This document shows, in pieces, positions 31,283 through 51,104 of a DNA stretch of 64,000 nt. Numbering within the stretch: the first letter of the stretch is position 1; each line of letters opens with the position of its first letter. A model generated the notes under the pieces. The model searched no databases, was not told the origin of the DNA, and saw only the letters and a program-made list of their open reading frames with translations. The DNA is from Pedobacter sp. BS3 (GTDB lineage: Bacteria; Bacteroidota; Bacteroidia; Sphingobacteriales; Sphingobacteriaceae): positions 124,001 through 188,000 of the forward strand of contig NZ_VTRT01000007.1 of assembly GCF_008274585.1 (NCBI RefSeq). Reading direction: 5' to 3'. A program made the translations under genes and the position numbers.

Positions 31283-31346
31283 CCATAAGCTATGAACCAT
31301 GAACCATCTGCTTACCTTAATACAAATGTCATTTTGTCAACAGAAG

Positions 31347-31378
31347 CTTGTGGCAGGATTATTGAATACGTACCTTTG
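31347..31378 (+). promoter_or_regulatory. Promoter of trxA
   Basis: TACCTTTG at 31371-31378 is a perfect Bacteroidota -7 box (TAnnTTTG). CTTG at 31347-31350 lies 20 bases upstream and is a three-of-four match to the -33 TTTG. Transcription would start near 31385, giving a leader of about 20 bases before the ATG at 31404. Confidence 0.65.
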
Positions 31379-31403
31379 AATTTGTAACCATAAATAAAAT
31401 ATC

Positions 31404-31724
31404 ATGGCTTTAGAAATAACAGATGCAAACTTCGATGAAGTAGTGTTGAAATCAGATAAACCGGTTTTAGTTGACTTTTGGGCTGAGTGGTGCGGGCCTT
31501 GCCGCATGGTAGGTCCGGTGGTTGAAGAACTGTCTAAAGAATACAGTGGTAAAGCCGTAGTAGGTAAGGTAAATGTGGATCATAACCCCAATATTTCCAT
31601 GAAATTTGGTATCCGTAATATCCCCGCCTTATTGTTCTTTAAAAATGGTGAAATTGTAGATAAACAAATTGGCGCAGTTCCTAAATCTGTACTGGCAGAT
31701 AAACTGAGCAAGCAAATAGCATAA
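31404..31724 (+). CDS. trxA: Thioredoxin
   Basis: This 106-residue cytoplasmic disulfide reductase has the redox motif WCGPC with Cys30 and Cys33, preceded by VLVDFWAE, and the cis-proline region NIPALLFF. All are in the standard thioredoxin layout and length. A clear promoter lies upstream and a strong intrinsic terminator 20 bases after the stop, so it is transcribed alone. It reduces targets such as ribonucleotide reductase and peroxiredoxins with electrons from thioredoxin reductase, which is not encoded in this window. The gene sits between two direct repeats of about 120 bp. Confidence 0.97.
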
Positions 31725-31743
31725 GTTTTACATTGTTAGTGTC

Positions 31744-31777
31744 AAAAGCTCCGCAGATTTCTGCGGAGCTTTTTTTT
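31744..31777 (+). terminator. Intrinsic terminator of trxA
   Basis: A 14-bp perfect stem (31744-31757 with 31760-31773, core AGCTCCGCAGA) with a two-base loop is followed by a run of T. It lies just after the trxA stop and is a classic Rho-independent terminator. Confidence 0.92.
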
Positions 31778-32058
31778 ATCATTTCTAACATCTGCTTTAA
31801 CCTTAACCTTACCATTAACCTCCTGCTTCCAGCTTAGTGAAATTGTTTAATTGTTGTATTCTGAATTGTTCTATTGTTGCCTGTTATGGGTTACGTGTTA
31901 CGAGCCTCATAACCCGTAACTCATAACCCGTAACTCGTTTCTACTTTCGGTCTTTTTCTGACTTTCCCGACTTCCGGACTATGTAACCATCAGCCATAAA
32001 CGTACTACGTAAACCCTAAAACTTATAACTAATCTTCTGTCTTTTACCTTTAAGCCTT
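31778..32058. other. Intergenic region with degenerate repeats
   Basis: Apart from the repeat copy at 31865-31980, this stretch is made of C/T-rich phrases (ACCTTAACCTTACCATTAACC, ACCTTTAAGCCTTCTACC) that resemble those at 32768-32889. No gene, promoter or strong hairpin was seen. Confidence 0.45.
31865..31980 (+). repeat. 120-bp direct repeat, copy 2 (downstream of trxA)
   Basis: This is the same element as 31161-31282, in the same orientation about 704 bases downstream. Shared anchors are GTTATGGGTTACGTGTTA, CTCGTTTCTACTTTCGGTC and CTGACTTTCCCGACTTCC. The heptamer part is shorter and mutated. It lies in the spacer between trxA and the end of the membrane-protein gene. Confidence 0.8.
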
Positions 32059-32889: not shown

Positions 32890-33846
32890 CTAAAAATAGC
32901 ATCTTGGAAAATCCCGGCCCAGAACCGGGAAACGGAATTGCAGGCTTATTTCATGCGTACCACGCTGGGCTTTAACAAGTTTAGTGGTTACAAAGTCGAA
33001 TGAGTACCCCAGGGCAATATTATCGGTGATGTATAGTTGTGCAATGGCGTCAAAAGAATCAAGAGATCGGTATGAAGCGCCTAACCATAATCGCTCACTG
33101 ATCAGCAGGTTTGCGTTCAGGTCAAATTGCAGCGGAGAGCCATTCACATACTTGAATAAAACGCTTGGCCTGAGCTTAAGTCCATCAGAAATAGTGTACA
33201 GGTAGCCGCCCTGCAGCATATAATAAGGGCGATATTTGGTTGCAGCGGCTCCGCCAAACGAATTGAGATCGCGGTAATAAAAATGAGGGGACGAAAATCC
33301 CGCGTAATAGCTACCAGAGAACAGCATTACCCCAAATCCAAAATTACCACGCGTGTTGTGCTCATTGTTAAATACCGGGTCGTTAACCGATTCGGGACTG
33401 TACGGGTAATCATCCGAGAAATTTGCCTGGTAGCTGCTAATGCCCCCGTTAAAACCTACGGCAAGATATGTGCCGTCGCCAATTTCAACCTGTTGAGCCA
33501 GGGTTAGATAAGCACCTTTTTCATTGAGCACCTCGCCGATCTGGTCGCGTATCAGAAAGCCGCCCACCGAAGTGTTAGACTCACCAATATGCGAGTAGGC
33601 CGAAAGCGTTTGCGTATTAGGAGCTCCTTTAAAACCGACCCATTGATGTCGCGAAAGCGCCGTAACAGTGAATGCCTCATCCATTGCCGAATATGCCGGG
33701 TTAATGGTGAGCCCGTTAAACATATATTGCGTGTAAATAGCCTTTTGCTGGGCAGAAGCGGATATTAACCCGGATAAAAGGCAGAAAAGCAATACAAGAT
33801 ATATCTTCAGAGTTACAGGACTTAAATGTTTACCAAAAGTACTCAC
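32890..33846 (-). CDS. PorP/SprF family T9SS outer-membrane protein
   Basis: PorP/SprF proteins are 14-strand-type outer-membrane barrels linked to the type IX secretion system. In Flavobacterium, SprF is needed to secrete the giant adhesin SprB, and related family members serve other cargos with type-B (CHU_C) C-terminal domains. The 318-residue protein has a signal peptide (LLSGLISASAQ) and then the family opening QKAIYTQYMFNGLTINPAYS, with ALSRHQWVGFKGAP and HIGESNTSVGGFL. It ends in alternating barrel strands (ALGYSFDFVTTKL, HEISLQFRFP). It is divergent from the 16-kb adhesin gene whose product ends in a CHU_C domain, so it is the likely dedicated partner of that protein. Confidence 0.92.
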   Translation of the reverse strand: MSTFGKHLSPVTLKIYLVLLFCLLSGLISASAQQKAIYTQYMFNGLTINPAYSAMDEAFTVTALSRHQWVGFKGAPNTQTLSAYSHIGESNTSVGGFLIRDQIGEVLNEKGAYLTLAQQVEIGDGTYLAVGFNGGISSYQANFSDDYPYSPESVNDPVFNNEHNTRGNFGFGVMLFSGSYYAGFSSPHFYYRDLNSFGGAAATKYRPYYMLQGGYLYTISDGLKLRPSVLFKYVNGSPLQFDLNANLLISERLWLGASYRSLDSFDAIAQLYITDNIALGYSFDFVTTKLVKAQRGTHEISLQFRFPVLGRDFPRCYF

Positions 33847-34733: not shown

Positions 34734-37700
34734 TTGTCCGTTTTGTTAGGTATTTTACGTAAGAAAAGTTTAAAGGCTTTCTTTACAGGGGCGTTATGCG
34801 CCGGCCATTGCCTGGTTGTTTGGGTGTTACTTTGTGCCTCAAATATTGCTTTGGCAGAGGGCAGTAAAGAAATGGCTGCAAATGGCGGGCACAGGGCGCA
34901 TTTTCTAAGCTCTGCAACAACGACCATATATAACCCATTTCCTACCTGGGGGCGGGTATACGTGTATGCCAAAGTTGGCGAAACCTTGTATTTGGGCTCA
35001 AGCGCTGTAGGTATAGGTCAAGGAAAAATTAATGTTACAGCACCCAATAACGCTTTTTATACAACAAGTACCTTAGGTAAAATTAATGACAGAACAGAGG
35101 AAGTAAATGGTCCTTTACCTAATGTAGGAGGGTATTCTGCCTATCAGATTACAGTAGGTGCAGGCCAGGAAGGTATCTGGCAAATAGAGTTTGTATCACC
35201 AGGAGAAGACCCGAGTGATGGGGACTCGAAGTTTACTCAACCCAATTCTATTCTGGCAAACAATAACTGGACGCAAATAAGCGATACCGAGTTCGTAACC
35301 GCATTTGACGTTTCAGTAAGAAACGCAGCGAATACCGCTTTTATTTCTGGCCGGGCATATATGAATATTTTTGGAGGTAATTTGGGCGATTATTCATCCC
35401 TGTTTAAAGCAAAGTTTAAGATTTTAACAAAAGATGGTTATCTCTATGATGTGGATAACAATGGGCAGGCCGGTTATCAGTTCGCTTTTTTTGTTAATAA
35501 TAAAGGTTTTAGGGATGTTAGTGCCAATGCGCTTTATAAAAGCATAAATACCACAAGTTCTCCGAATATTCATGACCCTCGTGCCGCGGATACACCGACA
35601 GACATTACCCATAAGATTTTCTTTAATACACCAAGTTCAGACCTGCCTGCATCCGCACCTATGCCGGGTGGAAATACCTGGTTGTTAACCACTCCGCCGG
35701 ATTTAAAGGTTGAGAATCTTGCTTTTCATGGGATTGAGGGTACGTTAAATCAGGCTGGCGTTTATCCATTAGGAGGCTATATCAATTTTGAAATGAGCCA
35801 GCCGGGGGCGTACATTATTAACTTGGATATTAACCAAAATGGTTCATTTGATGATAATGTAGATGTAAGGTTGACCGGAACTGCCACATCCGGGCTTAAT
35901 TCTGTTTACTGGGATGGCAAAAATGGACAAGGAACTATTTTACATGGTGCATTTACCTTCTCTCCGGGACAAATTAAGGTAACGTTGGTTGGCGGTGAGG
36001 TGCATTTTCCGTTCATGGATGTGGAGAATAACGTGAATGGTATTGTTATTACACGTACGAATGGCGATGGTTCACCCAGTGATATGGTTTATTGGGATGA
36101 TAGCGATATCTCGGCCACGGTCAGCCCCTCAAATCCTCGTAAGACTTCGGTTAATGGGTTAAGCAGTTCGTTAAATGGACATAAATGGGGCTCTACAGCG
36201 TATGAGGATGATGCTTTTGGCAATGAAGTGGGTTTAGATACCTGGACGTATGTCATGAGTTCGCCCTTAAGCCCCTTAATGAATATCCAGCTTAAAAAGG
36301 CCGACCTTGAAATTCAAAGCGTTGACCCAGATAAAACAACCTATTGCGTAGGCGAGCAGGTAACCTATACCGTAAAAGTGAAGAATAATGGGCCGGACGA
36401 TGTTACCGGGGCCAAATTTATTTTTGACTATCCTGCTCAGCTCACGGTAACAACGCTGAACCATACCACCAATTCGGGTACAACAAGTATCAGTAGTACG
36501 GCAAATTCAGGCTCACAGTTCACCGCGTTATTAAGCATGACCAATGGCGCCGAACTTACCTTAACGCTTACTGGTACCATTACTGCTTATCCTGGAACGG
36601 CAACGCTGGCGACAACCGCCAGCATTATGCGCCCGGCCGATGTAACCGACCCGGACGCCACCAATCCCGATGCCGCCCCGCCAACCGACCCACAGCTTGA
36701 ATGTGATTCAAATCCCAGCGGTGCTGGCTGTAATAATATAAAAAGTAACTCCATCAACATCAGTTCAGTTAATCTGAGCATTTTTGCTGCTTCAGCTACT
36801 GAAGGCACAGGAGGAACATCGAATATTACATTCCCGGTCACCTTATCGGGTGCTTCCAACTGTGATATTACGGTAGATTATGCTATTACTCACGGCACAA
36901 CCAATGCAGCCGATTTTGCCGGTGCAACCAGCGGAACCTTAACAATTCCTGCCGGTGCAACCTCTGCAAATATTGTTATCCCCATTACTACAGACCAGGT
37001 AGTGGAGGCCAATGAGACATTTACCATTGCGCTTTCCAACGCTTCGGGGGGTAACCAGATTGTAGCACCTTCAGCCGATGGTCTTATTAATAATGACGAT
37101 TCTGGTGGTATTACCATTACACCTTCCGGCGGGGCTGAAGGCGGAACGGATGCTTATTTCAAGTTCAGTCTTCCTTCGGGTGTTACAGCCGATAAAGACA
37201 TTGAACTCGATTACGTATTGAACGGCACAGCCATTGGTACGGATTATACCATTCCTGTTACGGGCACTGTGGTTATCCCCGCGGGCACAAATATGGTAAC
37301 TCTGCCTTTGGGAATTATTAATGATGATATTGTTGAGGGTAACGAAACTGTCAGCATGAGCATCACGCAAGTACGTAGTCCTTATTATCCAACCAATATT
37401 ACGTACGATACACCTATAGCACCCGAACTGACCATCACTGACGACGATACCGGTACACTGACGCTTAGCGACCCGGTAACCGTAACAGAGGGTGGGGCAG
37501 GAACCACGGTAACCGCCGATTTTAAGGTAACATTGGATAAAGCTACCGGCGATGGCTTTACCATCAGCTATGCCACCAGCGATGGTACCGCGAAAACCTC
37601 TGACCTGGATTATGTCGCTAAAGGCAATATTTTAAATTTTACCGGTGCTGCCAATGAATCATACACTATTCACATCACCATAAACGGCGATGACAAAATT

Positions 37701-40700
37701 GAACCGGATGAGCTGTTTAACCTGGCTATCAGCGGACTTACCAAGAATTTTGGCGGACGTTTAACGGTGGTGAACCCGGCAAGCTCCGCAACCATTCACA
37801 ACGATGATTCGGGTCAGGTCAGTATTACGGCAAGCGATGGCGAAGAAGGTGTCAGCGATGTGAAATTTACATTCAGCTTTCCTCCGGGTATGTCATCGGG
37901 CACACCTACGGTTATTAGCTATACCATTGATGATATTTCCGCGGGTGCTGCGTTGGGAAATAACGTAGATTATAACGCTTCACCAAGCGGAAGCGTTACC
38001 ATACCGGCCGGACAAAATAGCGTCACGCTTACCCTGCCTGTAGTGGATGATAATGTTATTGAGGGCGACGAAAACGTGAAGCTAACTGCCGCGGTTAGCA
38101 GCGCATTACCTGGCATCCAGGTAAGTAACTCGCCGCAAACGGCAATAATTAAAGATAACGACTATGCCGCGTTAACTATTTCATCGCCCACCGTTACCGA
38201 AACCGAAGCCAATACCACGGCCATCTTTGCCGTAACGCTCGATAAGCCTACAGGGGGAGCTTTTGATGTACAATATGCTACCAGCGATGGTACGGCAACC
38301 GTAGCCGATGGCGATTACGAAGAAAACCACGGTCTGCTTCATTTCAATGGTACTGCCAACGAAATAAAATACATTACTATAACCATAAAAGGCGATAAGA
38401 AAATAGAGACAGATGAGCTGTTCTACGTTACATTGAGCAGCCCAAGCAATACATTTGGCAACCGTTTAACCTTACCTCCTCCGGCAACAGGAACCATTCT
38501 TGACGATGACTCGGGCGCTATAACCATTACCAAAGTAGACGGCTCCGAGACCGGCCCCGCAGCCGCGAAATTTTTATTTAGTTTCCCTGCCGGCATTTCA
38601 TCCGACCAGCCGGTTACCATTCATTATGATTTTGATTTGTCGGCTGCCAACGCCGCGACACCCGGAACAGACTACACCGACGCGAATGCAGGTACGCTTA
38701 CTATCCCTGCCGGGGCGGGTAGCGCTACGCTTACCCTGCCGGTTATTGATGATGATATAGTAGAAGATACCGAAACTATCACATTAACTGATGCTACCTT
38801 TATTTCAAGCGCATACCCATCCGCTATTACGCTGAATACCGCCCGCCCGGTAGCCAATATTACCGATAACGATACCGCGACCCTGACCCTTACCGGCCCT
38901 ATGGCTATGTCCGAAGGAAATTCAGGGAATACGTTGTTTACGTTTAACCTAACGCTGGATAAAACGCTTCAGTATGCCATTAGTATTCCTTATGCCACTT
39001 CAGACGGTACAGCCACCATCGCTGATAACGATTACCAGGATACCCACGGTACCTTAACATTCAGCGCAGCCGAAAGCAAGCCCATTACCGTATATGTCAA
39101 TGGCGATACCCAAATAGAGCCCGATGAGCTGTTTAACCTCATTCTGGGTAACCCGAGCGATAACTTTAACGGGCGTTTAACCGTAGTGAACCCGGCAACC
39201 ACCGGAACCATCCAAAACGATGATTCGGCAGATATTATCATTACCAAACAGGATGGAACCGAAGACGGACAACCGGCACAGTTTATCTTTACCCTGAAAA
39301 ATGGTATGACCGTCGATGCCAATACTACCATCAGCTATACCTTAACGGGAACCGCCACCAGCGATGATTACACCGGCAGCCCATCGGGAACCATAACCAT
39401 ACCTGCCGGGCAGAACAACGCTACGCTTTCCCTGCCCATAACAGACGACAATAAAGTAGAAAATACCGAAACCATTAACCTTACGGTTAACGCGGTGAGC
39501 AGTCCGTATGGACTTGCCATAGATGTCGCCAACTCGCAAACCAGCCTTTTTATCTTTGATAACGACGAAGCCATAATAACCATCAGTCCGGCATCAGGTT
39601 TCGAAGGTCATACCGTTACTTCCGCGATGGTATTTAACGTAACGCTGAGCAAGCCGGTCAATCATCCGTTCAGGTTGTACTACCAAACGGCAGATGGTAC
39701 AGCCACCGTAGCAGATGGCGATTACCAGGAAGCGCCCAGCGGTGCTTACATCGATTTTACCGGCACAAATCCCGGCACAGAAACGCATACTATCAGTATT
39801 TCCGTTAACGGCGACCGTAAAATTGAAGCCGATGAAGATTTTAAGGTCATTATCGGCCCATTAACCAACGATGGCACTACCGATGATACCTTTGGCGGAT
39901 TACTCACCATCCCGCAAAATACAGCAACCGGTATTATCCAAAACGATGATTCCGGTGTAATTACCATTACCAGAACCGATGGGGCGGAAGAAGGCCCGGT
40001 GAACGGCAAATTTACGTTCAGCTTTCCTCCGGGAGTAACCTCCGACCAGCCTACAACTATTAACTATACGCTTGATGGCACGGCAACAGGGGGCGGAATA
40101 GATTACACCCCGCAATATACCGGCAGTATTACCATTCCTGCAAATGCCAACAGCGCAGACCTTATTCTTACTATAATTGACGATGCGCTGGTTGAAGGCG
40201 ATGAGACCGTTACCCTGAACAGTGTATCGTTGGGCAGCGCCCGCAGTGGCATTTCATTAAATCCGGCTGTTCCGCCCGTAGTAACCATTGCCGATAACGA
40301 CGTAGCGACCTTAACCTTTACCGGGCCGGCAACCATTACCGAAACCAATAGCGGCACTACCACGGCAACCTACACGCTCAAGCTGGATAAAGCCGTTCCC
40401 GGAGGCTTCAGCATTCAGTATGCTACAGCAGACGGTACAGCGACCGTTGCTGATAACGATTATGTAGCAGCGACCCAAACATTGGGATTCTCAGGTACAG
40501 CCGGCGAAACACAAACCATCAGCATTACCATTAATGGCGATGCCAAAATAGAACCTAACGAAACCTTTAAGCTTCTTTTAAGCAATTTATCAATCAATTC
40601 TCCGTCAGCCAATGGCCGTTTAACTGTTCCCGTAACAGCGTTGACAACTACTATTATGAACGATGATGATGGGAAAATCACCATTACCAAAACAGACGGA

Positions 40701-43700
40701 ACCGAGGGCGCTTCGGACGCCTCGTTTAAATTCAGCCTGCCGCCCGGTACCACGCTCGACCGCGATATTACCATCAATTATGCTTTAACCGGTACGGCGC
40801 TTTCGGGCACAGACTATAACGTATCGGCGCCAAGTCCGTTGGTATTACCTGCCGGTGCTAACGGTGTAACGCTGACTCTGGCGGTGAATAATGACAACGT
40901 TATTGAAGATACCGAAACGGTAAATCTCTCGGCTTCGGTAGTGAATAATATCTACGGAATTGATATAGATACCGGTAATTCACAGCAATTGCTCCATATT
41001 TTTGACGACGATACCGGAACCATAACCATTACCCCCGTAAGTATTCCCGAAGATAATGCCGGTACAAAAAACGCGACATTTACCGTAACCCTGAGCAACC
41101 CGACCACAGCAGCCTTCAAGGTACATTATAAAACGGTTGACGGCACGGCAACTACTGCCGATAATGATTACGAGTCTGTCGAGAACGACCTTGATTTTAG
41201 CGGTGCGCCGGGCAGCCTGACCCGCACCATTCAGGTGCCCATTACCGGCGACCGCAAAATTGAAGCCGACGAAGACTTTAGTGTGGTGCTTAGCCTGCTG
41301 AACGATGGCGTTACAGATTATACCTTTAACAACCGTCTGAGTATTGTTGGCAGCCCGGCCACAGGTACCATAGAAAATGATGATTCCGGTCAGGTAACCA
41401 TTAACGGAACTGATGGCGCCGAGGGCGGGGCTAACCCGGTATTTACGTTTAAGCTGCCGGGCGGCATAACCGCTGATAAGCCCATTACCATTACCTATAC
41501 GCTGGGTGGAACAGCAACCGGGGGCGGGCTTGACTATACGGCATCTGACCCTGCAAGCATTACCATTGCCCCGGGTCAAAACTCAGCTACGCTGACACTG
41601 GCCGTTAACGACGACGATATTATTGAAGATACCGAAACCGTTATATTAAATGACCTCGCTATCAGCAGCGATTACGGCAATGCCTTAAACCCGGTTAAAA
41701 CTTCGGTCAATATTTCCGATAACGACGCGGCACACCTGATATTGAGCGACCCGGTAACAGAGTCTGAAGGCAACAGCGGCACGAAGTTCATTACCTTTAA
41801 GCTCCGCCTGGATAAGGAAACCTCCGGTCAGTTCAGCATCAAGTACCATACCGGGGATGGTACGGCCACCATTGCCGATAACGATTATATCGCTTCAGGA
41901 ACCGTACAGCTTGATTTCGCAGGGCATGCGGGTGAAGAGAAAGAGATTAAGATTATTATAAACGGTGATACGCAAATTGAGGACAACGAGGATTTTTACC
42001 TGATATTAACCGACCTGAGCTCTGACTTCAACGGACGGCTGCTTATTCCTTCCAGCCAGACAAGAGGAATTATCAGTAATGACGATTCGCAGAATATCAC
42101 CATAACGAAAGTTAACGGTTCCGAAGATGGCACTAACGCATCATTTACCTTCAGTCTGCCGACCGGTGTAACCAGCGATAGTGACATCCAGATTGACTAC
42201 ACGCTTAGCGGAACCGCCACGCCCGGAGCTGCGAATGATTATACAGTTTCACTGCCAACGCCTGTAACACTTCCGGCAGGGCAGAACAGCGTAACCCTTA
42301 CCCTGAACGTAAACGATGACCAGCGCATAGAAGGAACGGAAACGGTAAACATCGAGGCCAATACCCGGCCCAATCCACATAGCATTACCATCATTAATCC
42401 CATAGAAGCGCTGGAAGTTTTAGATAACGATGAAGGTAAGCTGGCCATCTCATCCGTAACAGACAATGAGGGGCCAGGCGGCAATACTAAAACCTTTACG
42501 TTTGATGTGACCCTCGATAAGGCCACGGAGAAACCCTTTACTGTTCCTTATTCTACCAGCGACGGTACAGCAACTACGGCAGATAACGATTATGTTGCCG
42601 TTAATGGCATATTGTCTTTTTCGGGTAACGCCAACGAAACCCGGCACATCAGCATAACCGTGAACGGCGATAATAAAATTGAAGATAGCGAGACCTTCAA
42701 CGTTATCCTCGGTGCGCTGAGCAATGCCTTTGGCGGACGTTTGACCATCGATAATGCTATCGCTATTGGGACTATCACAAATGATGATTTAGGCAGTATC
42801 AGTATTGCTAAAACTGATGGCGCTGAGGCCGGGCCTGTTAACGGTAAGTTTACGTTCAGCTTCCCGCCGGGCGTAACGTCAGATAAGCCCGTCACCATCA
42901 CCTATGCGCTTGGCGGAACAGCCCAGGGGAACGGGGTCGATTATACGCCGTCCGGCGCAACCAGCATCACTATTCCGGCAAACGCGAACAGCGCAGACCT
43001 TATTCTCGCCGTAAACGACGATAACCTCGTTGAGCAGACTGAAACGGTTACGCTGGTCAATCCGCAGTTAGCGGCAATCTATCCCGGCATCAGCCTGAGC
43101 AACGCGGCACTACCGCAAGTCGCCATAACCGATAACGACGAGGCCAGGCTGGTATTAAGCAATCCGGTTATAACCGATGAGGAAAACTCCGGACAGAAAA
43201 CCATTACCTATAACCTGATGCTGGATAAGCCGGTAGACGGCAGCTTTTCGGTGAGCTATGCCACTTCGGATAATACGGCCACAGCCAATGAAGATTATGT
43301 GACGGCAAGCGGAACGCTGAGCTTCAACGGGCAGGCCAACATACCCCAGACCATACCAATAACCATAAAAGGCGATACCAAAATAGAGGCCGATGAGCTG
43401 ATTAACCTCGACCTGGATTTTGCAGCAGGCACAGATACCTATGGCGGCCGGTTAAGCATCCCGGTAAAACACGCTGTTACCACTATTCGGAATGATGATT
43501 TTGGGCAGCTAACCCTCACTAAAGTAGATGGTGAAGAAGGTGTGCAGGATGCCGCCTTTATATTCAGCCTGCCTGATGACATTACTACAGACCAGGATAT
43601 TTTGATTAACTATACGCTTGGCGGAACAGCAGCTGTTAACGATGATTATACCGGCGCAACTACCGGAACGCTAAAGCTGGAAGCAGGGCAGAACAGCGTA

Positions 43701-46700
43701 AGGCTCGACCTCCCGGTAATTGATGACAACCGGGTAGAAGATACCGAAACGGTCAGCATATTGGCAACCGTTAGCGGAAATCCGTACAATATCGGCCTGC
43801 TCAATCCTTCAGAGACATTGAACATCCGTGATAACGATTACGCGAAGATAACCATTGCCGATGTGAGCCAGGCAGAGGGACAGAGTGGTACATCGGTCAT
43901 GAAGTTTCAGCTCAAGCTGGATAAAGCCACCGGGCAGCCGTTCACGGTAGGCTATACCACAGCCGATATGACGGCCACAGCTGGCAGCGATTATGTCGCG
44001 GTAACTGCGGCAGACAACGCGGTGGTAAGCTTTAACGGCGAAGCCGGTGAAATCCGTGAAATCAGCATTATTATTAACGGTGATACCCGCATAGAGCCGG
44101 ATGAAACCTTTCGCATTGTGCTGGGAGCCATATCCAATACCTTTGGTAACCGTTTAACACGGACAAACAGCAGCGCTACCGGAACCATTGAGAATGACGA
44201 TAACGGCGAGATAAGCATTACAGCCGCTAATGGAAAAGAGGAAGGCGCTGTTGCCGGCAGCTTCACGTTCAGTTTACCGTCAGGGATTACCAGCGATGAA
44301 CCGGTTATCATAAACTATACGCTTGGCGGAACGGCAAAAGCCAATGGCACTGACTATACCGGCACAACAGCCGGCAGCGTTACCATTCCGGCGGGGCAAT
44401 CTTCGGTTACCCTTACCTTACCCGTAATTGACGACCAGGTTGTAGAAAGCAACGAAACCATCACGCTTACCAGTGTGAGCATCAGTAGTCCTGACCACGA
44501 TGTAACATTGGGTGCAGCCCGCCCGAATGTGATTATTGAAGATAACGATGAAGCGCACCTGGTGCTTATCGGCCCGCCGCCTGCAAATGAAAAAAATTCA
44601 GGTACTACAAAGCTGGTATTTACCGTAACGCTGGATAAGGCGATAGACGGTAATTTTACCATCCCGTACCATACGGAAGATGAAACAGCAACCACCGCCG
44701 ATAATGATTACCAGGCGGCAGCAGGCACACTGACCTTTTCCGGCGCCGCCAATGAGGTGAAGGAAATATCCGTATTTATAAACGGCGATACCAAAGTAGA
44801 AAGCAACGAAACCTTTAAGCTGATATTAGGCAGTCCGGATAACACCTTTAATGGTCACCTCATGGTGGATAATACCGCCGTTACTTACCAAATACTGAAT
44901 GATGATGCGGCCGCCATCAGCATAACCAAACAGGAAGGCGAAGAAGGCGTTCGTGATGCGTCTTTTACATTCAATATGCCGCCGGGCATTGTTTCCGATG
45001 CTGAAACCATCATTCACTATACGCTTGGCGGAACGGCAAAGGGTACAGATATAGATTATACAGGCGCTTTATCGGGCAGCATCAGCATCCCGGCAGGTGC
45101 ATCTTACGCCACCTTAACGCTTCCGGTTATTGATGATGACATCATAGAAGATACCGAAACCATCATTCTGACCACCGGGCTGGTAGAAAGCCCTTACGGG
45201 ATAACCGTTTCCACCCCATCGCAAACGCTCAATATCCTGGATAATGACCGGGGCATCCTGACCATCACACCGGCAAGCATACCCGAAACAAACGCGGGTG
45301 TAACGTATGCCGGGTTCGAGGTGAAGCTGAATAAGGCTACGGGCGTTCCGTTTACCATACAATATGCCACGGCAGATGGTACGGCAACCACGGCAGATAA
45401 CGATTATCAGCCTGTCACATCCGGTACATTAAGTTTTGATGGAAATGCGGATGAATTACGCCTGATTCGCATCCCGGTAAACGGCGATACTAAAATAGAA
45501 GCCGATGAAGGATTTTCGGTAAACCTGACCGGGCCGTTCCCGGATTTTAACGGGCGGCTTACGCTGAACACCGCTACTGTAAAAGGTACCATTCAGAATG
45601 ATGATAGTGGAGAGATTACGGTAACCAAAACAGATGGTTCTGAAACCGGGCCAACACAGGCAGCTTTTGTATTCAGTCTTCCTGAAGGAAAAACCTCAGA
45701 CAAGCCCATAACCATTACCTACCAGTTGGGCGGTACAGCAGTCATTAATGACGATTATACCGATGCCCATGCCGGAACGCTGGTGCTGCCTGCCGGGCAA
45801 AGCAGCGTTCAGCTTGACCTCCCGGTGATTGACGACGAGCTGGTAGAAGGCAGTGAAACCATAACCCTGCGGGTAACCGGCATCAGCAGCGCCAACACAG
45901 GCATAACCGTTAATCCGCTTATTCCATCGGTTACCATTACTGATAACGATGTGGCCACCCTGCGAATTGATGGCCCCATCTCGGTAGCCGAAGGTAACGC
46001 GGGAACTACGGTAGCAACATTTACCGTAACGCTGGATAAGGCCGTTGTCGGCAGCCCATCGGTAAGCTATACCACCAAAGACGGTACGGCAACCGTAGCG
46101 GACGGCGATTACGCACCAAGCACAGGCGTTTTGCAGTTTGAAGGTAAGGCGAATGAGCACAAATACATATCCGTAACGGTAAACGGCGATTTAAAAATTG
46201 AAAATGATGAACAGTTTACGGTAGTGCTGAGCAACCTGCAAACCTCATTCAACAGCCAGGTAATTGCAGAAAACCGTTTAATACTTAGCGGTTCTCCGGC
46301 AACAGGCATCATCCAGGATGACGATACCAATGCGGACAATAAGAAAATTACCATCGTCAAAACGGATGGTGCGGAAGGTGGCAGCGAGGCATCGTTTACG
46401 TTCAGTTTCCCGCCGGGCATAAGCGTTGATACCGATACGGAGCTGTTTTTCAGTCTGACAGGCACGGCCTCATCGGCAGATTACACACTGCCGCCCGGAC
46501 AGCAATCGGTCATTATTCCGGCAGGAGAAAACAGTAAAACCTTAAAGGTCCCAATTGTTGACGACCAGATTATCGAAGGAACGGAAACTATCATCTTAAC
46601 CACCGGTGTGGTAAGTAATACCCGTTACGGCGACATTACCGTAAGCAATTCGCCGCAAACTGCCGCTATTGCGGATAACGATTCCGGTTCACTCACCATA

Positions 46701-49700
46701 ACGCCGGCAGACCAGGACGAGGGTAATAGCGGAACCAGCACCATGACCTTTAACGTGAAGCTGGATAAAGAGACTGGTAAGCCGTTTACCATTGATTACC
46801 ATACGTTTAACGGTACGGCCGCGACAGAGGATAACGATTACCTGCCGGCATCGGGAAAATTGAGCTTTAACGGGGTAGCCGGAGAAACCAGAACTATTGA
46901 AGTCAGCATTATTGGCGACAGGAAAATAGAGCCCGATGAAACCTTTAATGTGCAGTTGGATAACCTCAACCCTGATTTTGAAGGTCGCTTGAATATTCCC
47001 GTTACACCTGCCATCGGAACAATTAGAAATGACGATAACGCCGTTATTACCATTACCAAAACCGATGGCGCCGAAGGAGGAGGTCCGGCAAGCTTCATAT
47101 TCAGTTTCCCTGCCGGATATAGCGCTGATACCGAAACAACCATCAGTTACACGTTGGGTGGAACAGCTACCGCCGGCGCAGATTATACCGGTTCGGTATC
47201 GGGAGTAGTTACTATCCCGGCAGGCGCTGAAAGTGCAAGCATGGTATTGTCTGTAATTGATGATGAGCTGATTGAGAACGATGAAACCATTACAATAGCT
47301 GCTACGCTGAACAATACCTATAGCAATATTACGCTTAGTCCTGACCAGACGGTAGCGACCATTGCCGATAACGATTACGCGACCTTAACCATAGACGGGC
47401 CGGTACGCGTAACAGAAGGAAATACCGGTACGCGGACGGCGGAATTTACAGTTAGCCTGGATAAAAATACCGGCAAAAGTTTCACGGTGAGCTATACCAC
47501 CAAAGACGGTACGGCAACCGTTGCCGATAACGATTATACAGCAGTTGCCGATAAGCTGACCTTTGCCGGGAACGCAGGCGAAAGCCACAAAATCTTTGTC
47601 GATATAAAAGGAGATACCAAAATAGAATCCGAAGAGTTTTTTGAAGTATTGCTGACCGCGTTATCCGATAACTTTAACGGCCGCTTATCCATCGTCGGTT
47701 CACCGGCACGGGGCATTATTGAGGACGATGATAATATCGCGGCCAATAAGCAGATAACTATCACCAAAACAGACGGCTCGGAAGACGGCGCTAATGCCGT
47801 GTTTACCTTTAGCTTCCCGCCGGGAGTTACCAGCGATGCGCAAACCGATATCACCTATTCGCTGGGCGGAACGGCAACCGGCAGGGGAACAGATTACAAT
47901 GGCGAAATTTCGGGTGTGGTGACCATTCCTGCCGGTAACAACAGCCAGCAGCTCATTCTTCCCGTTAAGGATGATGCAATTGTGGAAGGCGATGAAACCG
48001 TGGTGCTGGCAGCAGGCCAGGTAAGCAACAGCAGCTACAACGGTATCACCATAACCAATCCAACGGTAACGCTTAGCATTAAGGATAACGATACCGGTAC
48101 CTTGACCATCAGCCCCGCTCAAATCAATGAAGGTGATACCGGTACACGTACGCTGTCATTTAACGTAACGCTGAGCAAGGAAACCGGGCTTCCGTTCACG
48201 GTCAACTATGCTACGGCAGATGGTACAGCAACCGTTGCCGATAAAGATTATATCGCGATAAGCGACGGCAAGCTCGATTTTAGCGGGAAAGCGAACGAAG
48301 TGCAGACCATTAACGTCACCATTAACGGTGATAAGAAAATAGAGGCCGATGAAACTCTGCAGGTTATTCTGGGCGCCTTATCAGTGAACTTTGATGGTCG
48401 TTTGACCGTTTCGCAGCCGGCAGCGACTGGAACCGTTATTAACGATGATAACCTTGCCATCACCGTAACCGGAACCAATGGCGCCGAAGCCGGAACTGTT
48501 CCCGGAACGTTTACATTCAGTTTTCCAACAGGCATGACCTCGGATGCGCCCACACAGATAAAATACACCCTGGGTGGTACGGCAACGGGCGGAGGAACAG
48601 ATTATAACGCCCCGGTTTCCGGCACGGTAATCATTCCCGCGGGCGATGAAAAGGTTGTATTGACGCTGCCCGTAATTGACGATGATATTGTCGAAGACGA
48701 TGAACGCATCACTATCGACATCCCGGCAGGAGGTATTGTAAGCCCGCATAGCGACAATATGCAGGTAAATCAACCCTTGCCCGAAATTAAGATTACAGAT
48801 AATGATAACGCGAAGCTGACGCTAAGCGCTCCTGTTAAGCTGAGCGAGGGTGATAACGGCACAACCGCGTTCCAGTACACGCTTACGTTGGATAGTCCGA
48901 CAAATACCGGTTTTACGGTTGATTACGCTACCTCAGACGGTACGGCAAAAGCCGATGAAGATTACCGGCCCGCTTCCGGTACGTTAAGTTTTTCAGGAAC
49001 CAAAGGCGAAATGCTGCCCATTACCGTTTTGGTTAACGGCGACCTGAAAATTGAAGGCGATGAAGTATTCAATATCACACTGAGTAATTTAAGCAAACCC
49101 TTTAATAACCGGCTCACCATCCCGGTGAAAACGACTACCGGTACGATTATTAACGATGATGCCGCCGAAATTACAGTGACCAAGGTTGATGGAACAGAAG
49201 GCGGCCAGAACGGAAGCTTTATCTTTAGCCTGCCTTCCGGGGTAACCTCAGACCAGCCAACCGTAATCAGCTACCGGCTAACCGGAACGGCAACCGCCAG
49301 CGATTATACCGCTTCGCCGTCGGCATCAACCATAACCATTCCGGCCGAAGAGAACAGTGTTACATTGCATATCAATGTAACCGACGATGACATATTAGAG
49401 GAAACCGAAACCGTAGTACTGACCATCACGAAGGTGGATAACCCGTACAATAAAATTACGGCTACCGCCCCGGTTCCGGTGCTCAATATTTACGATAATG
49501 ACCAGGTGCAGCTAAGCGTCAGCAGTCCTGCCCCGGTAAAAGAGCGTAACCAGGGCAGCCAGACCGTAACCTTTTACGTTTCGCTGAATAAGCCTACCGA
49601 TAAAACATTTACCATAAATTACTCTACTGAGGACGGAACAGCTACCGTAGCCGATAAAGATTATGAAGCAAAAAGCGGCAGGCTGACCTTTGCCGGGTAC

Positions 49701-51104
49701 GCCGGTGAAAGTTACCCGGTATCGGTACAGATAAACGGCGACCTGAATATCGAAAATGATGAAACATTCACGCTGAAGCTGCTGAACCCAATCCCGGATT
49801 TTGCTGGTAATTTAATAATTAACGACCCGGGTACAGCTACCATTTTAAACGATGATATTCCGCCGGTAGCGGTAAATGACTTTATGTCTACCAATGAAGA
49901 TACCCAGGCTATTTTCCAGGTAACAGGTAATGACCACGATGATGATGGCAGCATCAATGTGGGCACGGTTACTATCATTCGCTATCCCGTTAAGGGCGAT
50001 GTAAAAGCCAATCCGGATGGTACGGTAACCTATATCCCGAACCTGAATGAAAACGGACAAGACACCTTTACCTATACCGTAAAGGATAATACCGGGTTGG
50101 TATCGAACGAGGCGGAAGTAACGGTTACTATTATCCCGGTTAATGACCCGCCGGTAGCTAACGATGATACATTCTACGTGCTCAAAGACAGCACCATCCG
50201 GGCAAATGTAGCCACGAATGATTCGGATGTGGACCATGATGTGCTGCGGTTTACAGTGAAAGATTATCCTAAGCATGGAACGCTTGCCCAGTTTGATTCA
50301 AGCGATGGAACATTCATTTATGTGCCTGATGCCGGCTTTAGCGGGGTAGATATATTTACTTACACTGCTTGCGACCCATCGGGTTTGTGTGATGATGCTA
50401 CCGTTATATTGAGTGTGCAGCCGCGGGTGCGGGTCGACCTTATTCCGCCCGACGGCATCATTACCGAAGGCGATTCCATCAATGTTACCGCCCGTTTAAC
50501 AGAGCCTTTGCTGGAAGATGTAACCGTTACACTAAGCTATGGCGGTACTGCCGAGCGGGATAAGGATTACATGCTTACCGGTAATTACACCACCATTGTG
50601 ATTCCTGCAGGCGAAACGTTAACCTCACAACGGGTAACTCTGAACAGTATTAAAGATTACCTGCGTGAGGGCGATGAAGTGGCCGAAATACGTATCGCCG
50701 CGGTTACACCGGCAAACTTTGTTATTATTGGCAGTGGCTCGGATATCACTATTAAAGATTTCTACCCCGAAGAAAAACCGGTAGACGATAATACCAACCC
50801 GGATATTCACCCTGACCCGATGATGTCGCCCAATGGTGACGGGTTAGGCAACGAGGTGTTTGTAATTTATAATATAGAACGGTATCCGGACAACGAAGTA
50901 CACCTGTACAACCGCTGGGGCAACGAGGTATATACTATCAAGGGATATAACAATAAGGATAAATCCTTTAATGGCATTGCCAATACCGGTCTCTTTGCCA
51001 ACAAAAGCAGCGGCCTGGTAGACGGGGTGTATTATTTCATTATTTACACCAAAACCGATAAAGGAACCCGGATGAATAAGGGATATGTGATCATGAAGCG
51101 GTAG
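34734..51104 (+). CDS. Giant Calx-beta repeat surface protein with T9SS type-B sorting domain
   Basis: This 5,456-residue exported protein is probably a calcium-binding adhesin. No ATG lies in frame upstream of the signal peptide (stop at 34722), so TTG 34734 (or TTG 34743) must start it. The signal peptide is rich in hydrophobics (CLVVWVLLCASNIALAEG). Residues about 60-515 are a unique beta region and about 520-620 a DUF11-like domain (ADLEIQSVDPDKTTYCVGEQ). Then follow about 37 Calx-beta domains in two alternating types: A with SDGTATVADNDY and INGD.KIE.DE, B with TDGSE...FTFSFPPGVTSD and DDDIVEDTETV. After these come two cadherin-like/VCBS-like modules (49.85-50.43 kb), one more Calx-beta-like unit, and a CHU_C domain (PMMSPNGDGLGN, LYNRWGNEVY, GVYYFIIY). 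Secretion by T9SS, helped by the divergent PorP/SprF, is expected. Confidence 0.93.
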   Translation: MSVLLGILRKKSLKAFFTGALCAGHCLVVWVLLCASNIALAEGSKEMAANGGHRAHFLSSATTTIYNPFPTWGRVYVYAKVGETLYLGSSAVGIGQGKINVTAPNNAFYTTSTLGKINDRTEEVNGPLPNVGGYSAYQITVGAGQEGIWQIEFVSPGEDPSDGDSKFTQPNSILANNNWTQISDTEFVTAFDVSVRNAANTAFISGRAYMNIFGGNLGDYSSLFKAKFKILTKDGYLYDVDNNGQAGYQFAFFVNNKGFRDVSANALYKSINTTSSPNIHDPRAADTPTDITHKIFFNTPSSDLPASAPMPGGNTWLLTTPPDLKVENLAFHGIEGTLNQAGVYPLGGYINFEMSQPGAYIINLDINQNGSFDDNVDVRLTGTATSGLNSVYWDGKNGQGTILHGAFTFSPGQIKVTLVGGEVHFPFMDVENNVNGIVITRTNGDGSPSDMVYWDDSDISATVSPSNPRKTSVNGLSSSLNGHKWGSTAYEDDAFGNEVGLDTWTYVMSSPLSPLMNIQLKKADLEIQSVDPDKTTYCVGEQVTYTVKVKNNGPDDVTGAKFIFDYPAQLTVTTLNHTTNSGTTSISSTANSGSQFTALLSMTNGAELTLTLTGTITAYPGTATLATTASIMRPADVTDPDATNPDAAPPTDPQLECDSNPSGAGCNNIKSNSINISSVNLSIFAASATEGTGGTSNITFPVTLSGASNCDITVDYAITHGTTNAADFAGATSGTLTIPAGATSANIVIPITTDQVVEANETFTIALSNASGGNQIVAPSADGLINNDDSGGITITPSGGAEGGTDAYFKFSLPSGVTADKDIELDYVLNGTAIGTDYTIPVTGTVVIPAGTNMVTLPLGIINDDIVEGNETVSMSITQVRSPYYPTNITYDTPIAPELTITDDDTGTLTLSDPVTVTEGGAGTTVTADFKVTLDKATGDGFTISYATSDGTAKTSDLDYVAKGNILNFTGAANESYTIHITINGDDKIEPDELFNLAISGLTKNFGGRLTVVNPASSATIHNDDSGQVSITASDGEEGVSDVKFTFSFPPGMSSGTPTVISYTIDDISAGAALGNNVDYNASPSGSVTIPAGQNSVTLTLPVVDDNVIEGDENVKLTAAVSSALPGIQVSNSPQTAIIKDNDYAALTISSPTVTETEANTTAIFAVTLDKPTGGAFDVQYATSDGTATVADGDYEENHGLLHFNGTANEIKYITITIKGDKKIETDELFYVTLSSPSNTFGNRLTLPPPATGTILDDDSGAITITKVDGSETGPAAAKFLFSFPAGISSDQPVTIHYDFDLSAANAATPGTDYTDANAGTLTIPAGAGSATLTLPVIDDDIVEDTETITLTDATFISSAYPSAITLNTARPVANITDNDTATLTLTGPMAMSEGNSGNTLFTFNLTLDKTLQYAISIPYATSDGTATIADNDYQDTHGTLTFSAAESKPITVYVNGDTQIEPDELFNLILGNPSDNFNGRLTVVNPATTGTIQNDDSADIIITKQDGTEDGQPAQFIFTLKNGMTVDANTTISYTLTGTATSDDYTGSPSGTITIPAGQNNATLSLPITDDNKVENTETINLTVNAVSSPYGLAIDVANSQTSLFIFDNDEAIITISPASGFEGHTVTSAMVFNVTLSKPVNHPFRLYYQTADGTATVADGDYQEAPSGAYIDFTGTNPGTETHTISISVNGDRKIEADEDFKVIIGPLTNDGTTDDTFGGLLTIPQNTATGIIQNDDSGVITITRTDGAEEGPVNGKFTFSFPPGVTSDQPTTINYTLDGTATGGGIDYTPQYTGSITIPANANSADLILTIIDDALVEGDETVTLNSVSLGSARSGISLNPAVPPVVTIADNDVATLTFTGPATITETNSGTTTATYTLKLDKAVPGGFSIQYATADGTATVADNDYVAATQTLGFSGTAGETQTISITINGDAKIEPNETFKLLLSNLSINSPSANGRLTVPVTALTTTIMNDDDGKITITKTDGTEGASDASFKFSLPPGTTLDRDITINYALTGTALSGTDYNVSAPSPLVLPAGANGVTLTLAVNNDNVIEDTETVNLSASVVNNIYGIDIDTGNSQQLLHIFDDDTGTITITPVSIPEDNAGTKNATFTVTLSNPTTAAFKVHYKTVDGTATTADNDYESVENDLDFSGAPGSLTRTIQVPITGDRKIEADEDFSVVLSLLNDGVTDYTFNNRLSIVGSPATGTIENDDSGQVTINGTDGAEGGANPVFTFKLPGGITADKPITITYTLGGTATGGGLDYTASDPASITIAPGQNSATLTLAVNDDDIIEDTETVILNDLAISSDYGNALNPVKTSVNISDNDAAHLILSDPVTESEGNSGTKFITFKLRLDKETSGQFSIKYHTGDGTATIADNDYIASGTVQLDFAGHAGEEKEIKIIINGDTQIEDNEDFYLILTDLSSDFNGRLLIPSSQTRGIISNDDSQNITITKVNGSEDGTNASFTFSLPTGVTSDSDIQIDYTLSGTATPGAANDYTVSLPTPVTLPAGQNSVTLTLNVNDDQRIEGTETVNIEANTRPNPHSITIINPIEALEVLDNDEGKLAISSVTDNEGPGGNTKTFTFDVTLDKATEKPFTVPYSTSDGTATTADNDYVAVNGILSFSGNANETRHISITVNGDNKIEDSETFNVILGALSNAFGGRLTIDNAIAIGTITNDDLGSISIAKTDGAEAGPVNGKFTFSFPPGVTSDKPVTITYALGGTAQGNGVDYTPSGATSITIPANANSADLILAVNDDNLVEQTETVTLVNPQLAAIYPGISLSNAALPQVAITDNDEARLVLSNPVITDEENSGQKTITYNLMLDKPVDGSFSVSYATSDNTATANEDYVTASGTLSFNGQANIPQTIPITIKGDTKIEADELINLDLDFAAGTDTYGGRLSIPVKHAVTTIRNDDFGQLTLTKVDGEEGVQDAAFIFSLPDDITTDQDILINYTLGGTAAVNDDYTGATTGTLKLEAGQNSVRLDLPVIDDNRVEDTETVSILATVSGNPYNIGLLNPSETLNIRDNDYAKITIADVSQAEGQSGTSVMKFQLKLDKATGQPFTVGYTTADMTATAGSDYVAVTAADNAVVSFNGEAGEIREISIIINGDTRIEPDETFRIVLGAISNTFGNRLTRTNSSATGTIENDDNGEISITAANGKEEGAVAGSFTFSLPSGITSDEPVIINYTLGGTAKANGTDYTGTTAGSVTIPAGQSSVTLTLPVIDDQVVESNETITLTSVSISSPDHDVTLGAARPNVIIEDNDEAHLVLIGPPPANEKNSGTTKLVFTVTLDKAIDGNFTIPYHTEDETATTADNDYQAAAGTLTFSGAANEVKEISVFINGDTKVESNETFKLILGSPDNTFNGHLMVDNTAVTYQILNDDAAAISITKQEGEEGVRDASFTFNMPPGIVSDAETIIHYTLGGTAKGTDIDYTGALSGSISIPAGASYATLTLPVIDDDIIEDTETIILTTGLVESPYGITVSTPSQTLNILDNDRGILTITPASIPETNAGVTYAGFEVKLNKATGVPFTIQYATADGTATTADNDYQPVTSGTLSFDGNADELRLIRIPVNGDTKIEADEGFSVNLTGPFPDFNGRLTLNTATVKGTIQNDDSGEITVTKTDGSETGPTQAAFVFSLPEGKTSDKPITITYQLGGTAVINDDYTDAHAGTLVLPAGQSSVQLDLPVIDDELVEGSETITLRVTGISSANTGITVNPLIPSVTITDNDVATLRIDGPISVAEGNAGTTVATFTVTLDKAVVGSPSVSYTTKDGTATVADGDYAPSTGVLQFEGKANEHKYISVTVNGDLKIENDEQFTVVLSNLQTSFNSQVIAENRLILSGSPATGIIQDDDTNADNKKITIVKTDGAEGGSEASFTFSFPPGISVDTDTELFFSLTGTASSADYTLPPGQQSVIIPAGENSKTLKVPIVDDQIIEGTETIILTTGVVSNTRYGDITVSNSPQTAAIADNDSGSLTITPADQDEGNSGTSTMTFNVKLDKETGKPFTIDYHTFNGTAATEDNDYLPASGKLSFNGVAGETRTIEVSIIGDRKIEPDETFNVQLDNLNPDFEGRLNIPVTPAIGTIRNDDNAVITITKTDGAEGGGPASFIFSFPAGYSADTETTISYTLGGTATAGADYTGSVSGVVTIPAGAESASMVLSVIDDELIENDETITIAATLNNTYSNITLSPDQTVATIADNDYATLTIDGPVRVTEGNTGTRTAEFTVSLDKNTGKSFTVSYTTKDGTATVADNDYTAVADKLTFAGNAGESHKIFVDIKGDTKIESEEFFEVLLTALSDNFNGRLSIVGSPARGIIEDDDNIAANKQITITKTDGSEDGANAVFTFSFPPGVTSDAQTDITYSLGGTATGRGTDYNGEISGVVTIPAGNNSQQLILPVKDDAIVEGDETVVLAAGQVSNSSYNGITITNPTVTLSIKDNDTGTLTISPAQINEGDTGTRTLSFNVTLSKETGLPFTVNYATADGTATVADKDYIAISDGKLDFSGKANEVQTINVTINGDKKIEADETLQVILGALSVNFDGRLTVSQPAATGTVINDDNLAITVTGTNGAEAGTVPGTFTFSFPTGMTSDAPTQIKYTLGGTATGGGTDYNAPVSGTVIIPAGDEKVVLTLPVIDDDIVEDDERITIDIPAGGIVSPHSDNMQVNQPLPEIKITDNDNAKLTLSAPVKLSEGDNGTTAFQYTLTLDSPTNTGFTVDYATSDGTAKADEDYRPASGTLSFSGTKGEMLPITVLVNGDLKIEGDEVFNITLSNLSKPFNNRLTIPVKTTTGTIINDDAAEITVTKVDGTEGGQNGSFIFSLPSGVTSDQPTVISYRLTGTATASDYTASPSASTITIPAEENSVTLHINVTDDDILEETETVVLTITKVDNPYNKITATAPVPVLNIYDNDQVQLSVSSPAPVKERNQGSQTVTFYVSLNKPTDKTFTINYSTEDGTATVADKDYEAKSGRLTFAGYAGESYPVSVQINGDLNIENDETFTLKLLNPIPDFAGNLIINDPGTATILNDDIPPVAVNDFMSTNEDTQAIFQVTGNDHDDDGSINVGTVTIIRYPVKGDVKANPDGTVTYIPNLNENGQDTFTYTVKDNTGLVSNEAEVTVTIIPVNDPPVANDDTFYVLKDSTIRANVATNDSDVDHDVLRFTVKDYPKHGTLAQFDSSDGTFIYVPDAGFSGVDIFTYTACDPSGLCDDATVILSVQPRVRVDLIPPDGIITEGDSINVTARLTEPLLEDVTVTLSYGGTAERDKDYMLTGNYTTIVIPAGETLTSQRVTLNSIKDYLREGDEVAEIRIAAVTPANFVIIGSGSDITIKDFYPEEKPVDDNTNPDIHPDPMMSPNGDGLGNEVFVIYNIERYPDNEVHLYNRWGNEVYTIKGYNNKDKSFNGIANTGLFANKSSGLVDGVYYFIIYTKTDKGTRMNKGYVIMKR
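37450..49850 (+). repeat. Higher-order coding repeat of about 1.42 kb (four Calx-beta domains per unit)
   Basis: Domain types alternate A-B-A-B, and odd and even copies of each type differ. Odd A domains open with words like TLTLTGP or LVLSNPV and SEGNSG; even A domains open with LTITPAS. Odd B domains carry ETGP/EEGPVNGKF and end in a TDND. Even B domains carry EDG/EGV..ASF and end NPYN or SPYG. The true period is therefore four domains. Unit starts fall near 37450, 38877, 40306, 41730, 43141, 44550, 45953, 47380 and 48810, spaced 1403-1430 bases apart. Confidence 0.8.

What the first reader, a model, noticed from the sequence alone, without database searches (positions are those of the whole stretch)
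37450..49850. Four-domain higher-order repeat in a 16-kb Calx-beta adhesin gene
Seen: the Calx-beta domains alternate between two types, and odd- and even-numbered copies of each type carry different signature words. The repeat unit is thus four domains (about 470 residues, 1.40-1.43 kb). Anchors at 37450, 38877, 40306, 41730, 43141, 44550, 45953, 47380 and 48810 show striking regularity over eight full periods. This implies growth of the gene by duplication of a four-domain block, followed by divergence that kept positional identity. Such positional identity could be selected to block slippage between neighbouring domains or to make a structural super-turn of the fibre.
Basis: seen in the sequence. 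Interest (0 to 1): 0.7.

Follow-up and report, generated by a model that had tools for sequence, protein, structure and literature searches.

The report
Four-domain repeat in giant bacterial adhesin
A very long bacterial surface protein is built from 36 similar calcium-binding-type domains that follow each other in a four-step rhythm, and related genes in other genera keep the same rhythm although their DNA has long since diverged, so it looks like an old, stably kept building plan rather than a fresh duplication.

Summary
The ORF 34734-51104 (5456 aa) carries a lead-in Calx-beta domain (B0) and 18 alternating A-B pairs. All nine anchors fall within 0-4 nt of the starts of B1, B3 ... B17. Odd and even copies differ: same-parity identity is higher for A (z 5.5) and B (z 3.6); of periods 2-8 pairs only two pairs (four domains) stands out. 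HMMs trained only on other genera give the right parity to 16/18 A and 16/18 B window domains. The window's own tree does not resolve four clades, and its DNA barely prefers the four-domain lag.

Homologous genes in other Sphingobacteriaceae show the same register in 10 of 10 long arrays tested, window included. B odd/even types are shared by all 45 array pairs, A types only within two groups. Silent sites are near saturation in the window. Terminal pair counts are 18 in 8 of 11 arrays, else 14, 22 and 4; one species lacks two separate blocks of exactly four domains. Best reading: an old four-domain unit, changed in register and kept by purifying selection. A super-turn or anti-slippage role is not shown. 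Super-repeats are known (nebulin, fibronectin III, titin); this is a bacterial, type IX-secreted member of that kind.

The parts
34734..51104 (+). giant adhesin-like ORF, 5456 aa (TTG start as listed; the true start is uncertain)
34734..36773 (+). leader and N-terminal module, residues 1-680, also found in relatives without this array
36303..36668 (+). DUF11 domain (PF01345), residues 524-645
36774..37100 (+). B0, divergent lead-in Calx-beta-like domain outside the periodic array
37101..49856 (+). periodic array: 18 A-B Calx-beta pairs = nine four-domain units (the phase of the unit is arbitrary)
37101..38510 (+). four-domain unit 1 (A1 B1 A2 B2)
38511..39950 (+). unit 2 (A3 B3 A4 B4)
39951..41384 (+). 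unit 3 (A5 B5 A6 B6)
41385..42788 (+). unit 4 (A7 B7 A8 B8)
42789..44201 (+). unit 5 (A9 B9 A10 B10)
44202..45605 (+). unit 6 (A11 B11 A12 B12)
45606..47036 (+). unit 7 (A13 B13 A14 B14); long B13-A14 linker, at the same place in G018
47037..48449 (+). unit 8 (A15 B15 A16 B16); long B15-A16 linker, at the same place in G018
48450..49856 (+). unit 9 (A17 B17 A18 B18); A18 and B18 break the parity rule
49860..50411 (+). two cadherin-like / Big_9 domains
50436..50760 (+). one further Calx-beta-like domain (limits approximate, read from the translation)
   Evidence: counterparts in other arrays (weak scores)
50820..51092 (+). CHU_C type IX secretion sorting domain
   Evidence: (TIGR04131 below its cut-off)
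32890..33846 (-). PorP/SprF-like gene, divergently placed upstream; possible anchor partner

Best explanation
The gene encodes a type IX-secreted, stalk-like surface protein whose stalk is 36 Calx-beta domains in nine copies of an old four-domain unit (A-odd, B-odd, A-even, B-even). The unit is older than the divergence of the sampled genes: B types are shared by all arrays, A types within two groups. Arrays changed by duplication, deletion and copying in register, by multiples of four domains wherever an event could be read. Between such events the types were kept by purifying selection on the protein while silent sites decayed. Shown: the register, its sharing between genera, near-random codon use in the window copies, and several events of four-domain multiples. 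Inferred: the order of events, in-register exchange as the mechanism, descent versus transfer between genera, and the stalk/adhesin role.
For: Register in the window and in 10 of 10 arrays tested (20 of 20 A or B tests p<0.04, z 1.9-8.7; the arrays are related, so not independent). Window domains classified by other genera's HMMs: 16/18 A, 16/18 B. Pooled 72-domain trees need 11 parity changes for B (window, G018, G006, G011) and 8 for A (window, G018, G046, G123, i.e. within one A group) against 24.4 and 24.2 shuffled, 0 of 500 as low. B parity z is positive in 45 of 45 array pairs (1.5 to 10.3). Same-codon use at identical residues in the window is 0.39-0.50 against 0.38-0.40 expected, so no recent copies there. 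Events: P. puniceum (G099) lacks A4-B4-A5-B5 and separately B10-A11-B11-A12; G123 has 22 pairs and a duplicated stretch offset by 8 domains (2868 nt, 85% over 2.3 kb); G011 and G063 hold one tract of about one unit repeated five units apart (99.6% and 86%); G046 has a 12-domain super-period (z 10.3). Three short Mucilaginibacter relatives scanned have the N-module region and CHU_C but no array, and one Chitinophaga relative has cadherin-like repeats instead, which fits a stalk.
Against: In the window the DNA barely distinguishes four from two domains, so similarity-guided exchange cannot be seen there. The window tree does not resolve four clades. G018's B domains were not significant by identity (p 0.15), only by score (p 0.016). 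Lag 4 itself is not significant in G046 (z 0.5) and G123 (z 1.6), which peak at 12 and 8; G123's short self-hits are 4 even, 9 odd. A types do not carry over between the two groups, and in three comparisons look inverted (z -4.9, -3.0, -2.2). G070 (four terminal pairs) and six more distant family arrays peak at two domains. The gene tree of the N-module does not follow the genus codes, so transfer between genera is likely and the age of the unit relative to the genera is open.
Confidence: 0.75

Rival explanations
1. The four-type order is itself selected, for example because odd and even junctions differ in geometry and give the fibre a super-turn or a ladder of sites; off-register changes are removed by selection.
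For: In old arrays in-register DNA similarity at one and two pairs is nearly equal (0.529 against 0.553 in the window, 0.522 against 0.543 in G018), yet both missing blocks in P. puniceum are four-domain, in two different phases. 18 terminal pairs recur in 8 of 11 arrays. Parity is kept where positional orthology is weak (window against G046: parity z 7.5/5.2, position z 1.5/1.3). The strongest parity-marking A columns lie between the first two strands and at the start of the last strand (strand limits), which might face neighbours.
Against: Few independent events (about five, my count). No measured difference in junction geometry. A types were replaced or inverted in one group without loss of the B register. 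A1, A18, B9 and B18 break the rule in the window.
Confidence: 0.17
2. The pattern keeps neighbouring copies unlike each other, to prevent misfolding or slippage.
For: Adjacent domains are on average 27.6% identical in the window. Low identity of neighbours is thought to avoid misfolding (PMC4660218: abstract, and passages). No array has a 150-nt self-match at an odd pair lag (0 of 63).
Against: A-B alternation alone already gives the low neighbour identity. Lag-2 identity (46.6%) is no lower than at lags 6, 10 and 14.
Confidence: 0.05
3. Chance or alignment bias: two domain types only, with no real odd/even split.
For: Weak supports in the window tree; tie of ungapped DNA lags; even and odd short self-hits equal in the window.
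Against: Out-of-sample classification 32 of 36; 20 of 20 tests over the window and nine related arrays; diagnostic extra residue in 9 of 9 odd B.
Confidence: 0.02

Closest known systems
Super-repeats of nebulin (seven domains) and four-domain duplication units of fibronectin III arrays (PMC1553488: abstract and outline; one section)
   Same: Array of one domain family whose similarity peaks at a multi-domain distance; growth by several domains at a time; same autocorrelation logic
   Different: Here a bacterial Calx-beta protein; types shared between genera with near-random codon use between copies; gains and losses readable between species
Titin A-band super-repeats (PMC10665226, PMC7427331; search listing only)
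   Same: Giant multi-domain protein with a fixed order of domain types repeated along a rod
   Different: Titin mixes Ig and fibronectin domains and its pattern reflects the muscle filament; no such ruler is known here
Periscope proteins (PMC8201768, passages only)
   Same: Bacterial surface stalk of tandem folded domains that projects a terminal module
   Different: Periscope repeats are highly similar and vary in number even between similar strains; here neighbours are 27.6% identical and 18 pairs recur between genera (strains of one species were not compared beyond two P. glucosidilyticus genomes)
SprB-like type IX-secreted adhesins with type B CTD and PorP/SprF partners (PMC9143113, abstract read)
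   Same: CHU_C sorting domain and a PorP/SprF-like gene nearby
   Different: No homology of the stalk to SprB was tested; gliding was not examined

Membership tests
Calx-beta domain family (PF03160) | match over the curated cut-off | tested here: met
   10 + 13 stretches in two halves; 31 matches in the genome, all in this gene; 23 over the cut-off
Calx-beta domain family (PF03160) | Calx-beta fold | tested here: met
   AlphaFold model of four domains, mean pLDDT 89.3; Foldseek hits include NCX1 CBD12 3us9 (E 5.5e-11) and CALX CBD12 3rb7, though the first three ranks are axoneme chains
Calx-beta domain family (PF03160) | calcium binding | not testable with these tools
   several acidic positions are invariant in all 18 pairs; binding itself untested
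Type IX-secreted type B CTD cargo | CHU_C / T9SS sorting domain at the C-terminus | tested here: met
   PF13585 E 1.9e-18; the type B model TIGR04131 gives E 7.9e-6 but 25.9 bits against a cut-off of 35
Type IX-secreted type B CTD cargo | PorP/SprF-like partner | tested here: inconclusive
   PorP/SprF gene at 32890-33846; pairing with this protein not tested
Multi-domain super-repeat protein | similarity peak at a distance of several domains, above shuffles | tested here: met
   window lag 4 z 5.1, lag 2 z -2.2; parity tests
Periscope protein | high identity between repeats | tested here: not met
   mean identity 27.6% between adjacent domains, 50.6% at lag 4
Periscope protein | repeat-number variation between similar strains | not tested
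   mainly different species were compared; the two P. glucosidilyticus genomes both have 18 pairs

The most novel reading that the evidence does not exclude
The four-type order is a selected structural register of the fibre: arrays may only gain or lose whole four-domain turns, so copy number is quantised (14, 18, 22 and 4 terminal pairs; all differences within a group are multiples of four domains), a prokaryotic counterpart of titin or nebulin super-repeats.
Probability: 0.18. Interest if true: 0.7.

Novelty: new member of a known kind. Interest (0 to 1): 0.45.

Why it matters
It gives a clear bacterial case of a super-repeat that outlived its DNA similarity. Eleven related arrays can be compared position by position, so whether such registers are kept by recombination or by structure becomes testable. 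It also contrasts with the nearly identical repeats of periscope proteins: here a very long stalk keeps a recurring domain count with very unlike neighbours.

Tried and rejected
Ungapped DNA autocorrelation could not separate two- from four-domain periods, because domain lengths vary. The window-only trees lack resolution; the AU test neither rejects nor shows one odd clade (p 0.51 A, 0.27 B). Recent duplication of the window array was rejected. Neighbour avoidance was tested and not seen. Extension to six more distant family arrays (G287, G269, G227, G188, G308, G179) and to G070: they peak at two domains, not four. Structure: folds but no coordinates, so the super-turn stayed untested; the second structure job was not used. 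Literature: searches for Calx-beta adhesin repeats (6 listed of 7), tandem neighbouring domains and aggregation (2), higher-order repeat with adhesin (2), type IX secretion / Bacteroidetes / Calx-beta (12 listed of 306) and super-repeat / adhesin / Ig-like (15 listed of 499, none of these with the word super-repeat) showed no title or abstract start that describes this. The lists are capped and most subscription papers are not held, so this is not proof of absence.

Full report
What is there. The window (G000:C25:124001-188000 of a 4.8-Mb genome) holds one ORF at 34734-51104 on the + strand, 5456 aa. Pfam finds DUF11, many Calx-beta domains, two cadherin-like domains and a CHU_C type IX sorting domain. 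All 31 Calx-beta matches of the genome lie in this gene. Splitting at the conserved domain ends gives a lead-in domain B0 and 18 A-B pairs, 37101-49856. A PorP/SprF-like gene lies upstream on the other strand and a MoxR/DUF58/BatA/BatD gene cluster downstream.

Check of the observation. B17 to within 4 nt; the mean period is 1420 nt or 473 residues. Mean identity by pair lag is higher at even than at odd lags for A at nearly every distance (0.498 at lag 2 against 0.443 at lag 1) and for B at the shorter lags (0.494 against 0.461); label shuffles give z 5.5 for A and 3.6 for B. Best matches have the same parity for 16 of 18 A and 15 of 18 B. The parity labels need 3 changes on the A tree (4 of 500 shuffles as low) and 4 on the B tree (27 of 500), with weak supports. 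DNA-level support in the window is slight: ungapped lags tie and the top two are about 3 and 3.5 units, codon-aligned identity is 0.553 against 0.529, and self-hits are 31 even against 29 odd.

Homologues. Of 41 genomes (window's own and 40 relatives), 19 have Calx-beta matches. The N-terminal module profile matches 149 of 399 family genomes at E 0.001; by my count of the list 41 of these are weak (E above 1e-40), many of the listed weak matches covering only the DUF11 region. The A-B pair profile matches 27 of 399 genomes at E 1e-30 and 11 of them, the window's included, at E 1e-80 (which scored at most 7 candidates a genome). Of the 80 loci kept from named genomes (97 found), the longest + strand frame shows the A/B array in nine, and an irregular array in one more, L127. 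The other sampled member of the window's genus, G001, has only weak hits to the N-module (best 2.2e-9) and no match to the pair profile at 1e-30 among the 7 of 16 candidates scored; its own Calx-beta gene runs into a contig end.

The register across species. In all ten long arrays, the window's included, both A and B show the two-pair (four-domain) period (20 of 20 tests, p<0.04). Autocorrelation over single domains in nine arrays peaks at 4 in the window, G018, G128 and G063, at 4 and 8 in G011, at 8 in G123 and G006, at 12 in G046, and weakly at 4 and 12 in G099 (z 2.1 and 1.8); lag 4 itself is not significant in G046 and G123. B parity types agree in all 45 array pairs; A types agree within {window, G018, G112, G128, G099, G046, G123} and within {G006, G011, G063}, not between, with three comparisons looking inverted. 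Window-trained models place G018 A 16/18 and B 13/19, G006 B 19/22 and A 15/30, G011 B 13/20 and A 14/24, domains before pair 1 counted. Models trained on other genera place the window's 16/18 and 16/18. Pooled trees cluster parity strongly, 0 of 500 shuffles as low, the A tree being confined to one A group. Window and G018 also share positional identity, strongest at the C-terminal end, including long linkers at the same two junctions.

Age and events. At identical residues, codon sharing in the four arrays examined is 0.37-0.55 against 0.35-0.48 expected, apart from 0.65-0.66 at lag 10 in G011; the excess is at most about 0.10 in the window and G018 and up to about 0.13 in G006. Third positions tell the same. 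The one fresh event is in G011: a 1.5-kb tract, 99.6% identical, repeated five units apart; what look like the same two places are 86% identical in G063, so copying in register may recur. P. puniceum lacks A4-B4-A5-B5 and B10-A11-B11-A12 relative to G018, G128 and G112. On the N-module tree it is sister to G128 (98/98) inside a group whose other members G018, G112, window and G046 have 18 pairs, so losses are the simplest reading. Positional similarity between window and G018 supports this for pairs 10-12 but not for pairs 4-5, and the tip module may have its own history. G123 has 22 pairs and a duplicated stretch offset by eight domains. Terminal pair counts are 18 in 8 of 11 arrays, else 14, 22 and 4. 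Counting all Calx domains between B0 and the last one, arrays without an A-only run have 36 (five arrays), 28 or 44, and those with one have 51, 43, 43 and 23: every difference within a group is a multiple of four. With about five independent events this is suggestive, not proof.

Mechanism. The simplest account is an ancestral four-domain unit, spread and pruned by in-register exchange, with types then held by purifying selection. In the more recently active arrays same-type copies offer the long DNA matches: 63 of 63 self-hits of at least 150 nt are at even pair lags, 49 of them from G006, G011 and G063; over all lengths it is 231 even, 136 odd and 5 A-B, with G123 the other way round (4 against 9). 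In old arrays the DNA offers almost no preference, which leaves room for selection on the order itself. The strongest parity-marking A columns lie between the first two strands and at the start of the last strand; in B the strongest marker is the proline position after the first strand (strand limits). The predicted fold of one unit is confident and its Foldseek hits include NCX1 and CALX CBD12, but relative orientation is not (pTM 0.63), and coordinates were not at hand. Neighbour avoidance is not seen beyond the A-B alternation. The protein is probably a type IX-secreted stalk anchored through a PorP/SprF-like partner: type B CTD proteins bind such partners (PMC9143113, abstract), and the three short relatives scanned keep both ends without a stalk. 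The stalk and adhesin roles are inference.

Comparison. Multi-domain duplication units are known: seven in nebulin, four in fibronectin III arrays (PMC1553488, abstract and one section), and super-repeats in titin (listing only). Periscope proteins differ by highly similar, variable repeats (PMC8201768, passages). I therefore file this as a new member of a known kind, with the unusual traits of sharing between genera and apparent copy-number steps of four domains.

Noticed in passing
G128 array gene (L156): The reading frame ends at the start of the second cadherin-like domain, before the CHU_C sorting domain, so this copy appears cut short (or the sequence has an error).
   Followed up: no
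G006, G011, G063, G070 (L037-L040, L158, L167): A-only runs of 6 or 10 domains with long linkers sit between the first pairs and the terminal array; run lengths differ by four domains.
   Followed up: partly
L159, L160 against L037-L040 arrays: A-domain parity looks inverted relative to B parity between {G046, G123} and {G006, G011} (z -4.9, -3.0, -2.2, -1.3), as if A and B registers had slipped by one pair.
   Followed up: no
L085, L100, L103 (Mucilaginibacter) and L081 (Chitinophaga): Relatives with the same N-terminal module have either no array (835-860 aa, ending in CHU_C) or a long cadherin-like array instead of Calx-beta.
   Followed up: partly
array genes of G006, G046, G063 (one genus code) and G123, G018 (one genus code): The N-module tree does not group these genes by genus code, and the gene is patchy in the family, which hints at transfer between genera.
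   Followed up: no
window 60414-61197: A 397-bp unit repeated twice in tandem (89% matches) starting at the end of a TPR/SH3 gene.
   Followed up: no
window 31203-31936: Short tandem repeats (TCATAAC x5.3 and a 14-base unit) after the TamB-like gene.
   Followed up: no
G287, G269, G179, G308 arrays (L161, L162, L168-L170): More distant family arrays share an almost identical string of best-HMM labels across species, with a two-domain rather than four-domain peak.
   Followed up: partly
L157 (G112) against L041/L042 (G018): N-terminal modules are more diverged (branch 0.22 against 0.034) than the C-terminal parts, suggesting exchange of the tip module.
   Followed up: no
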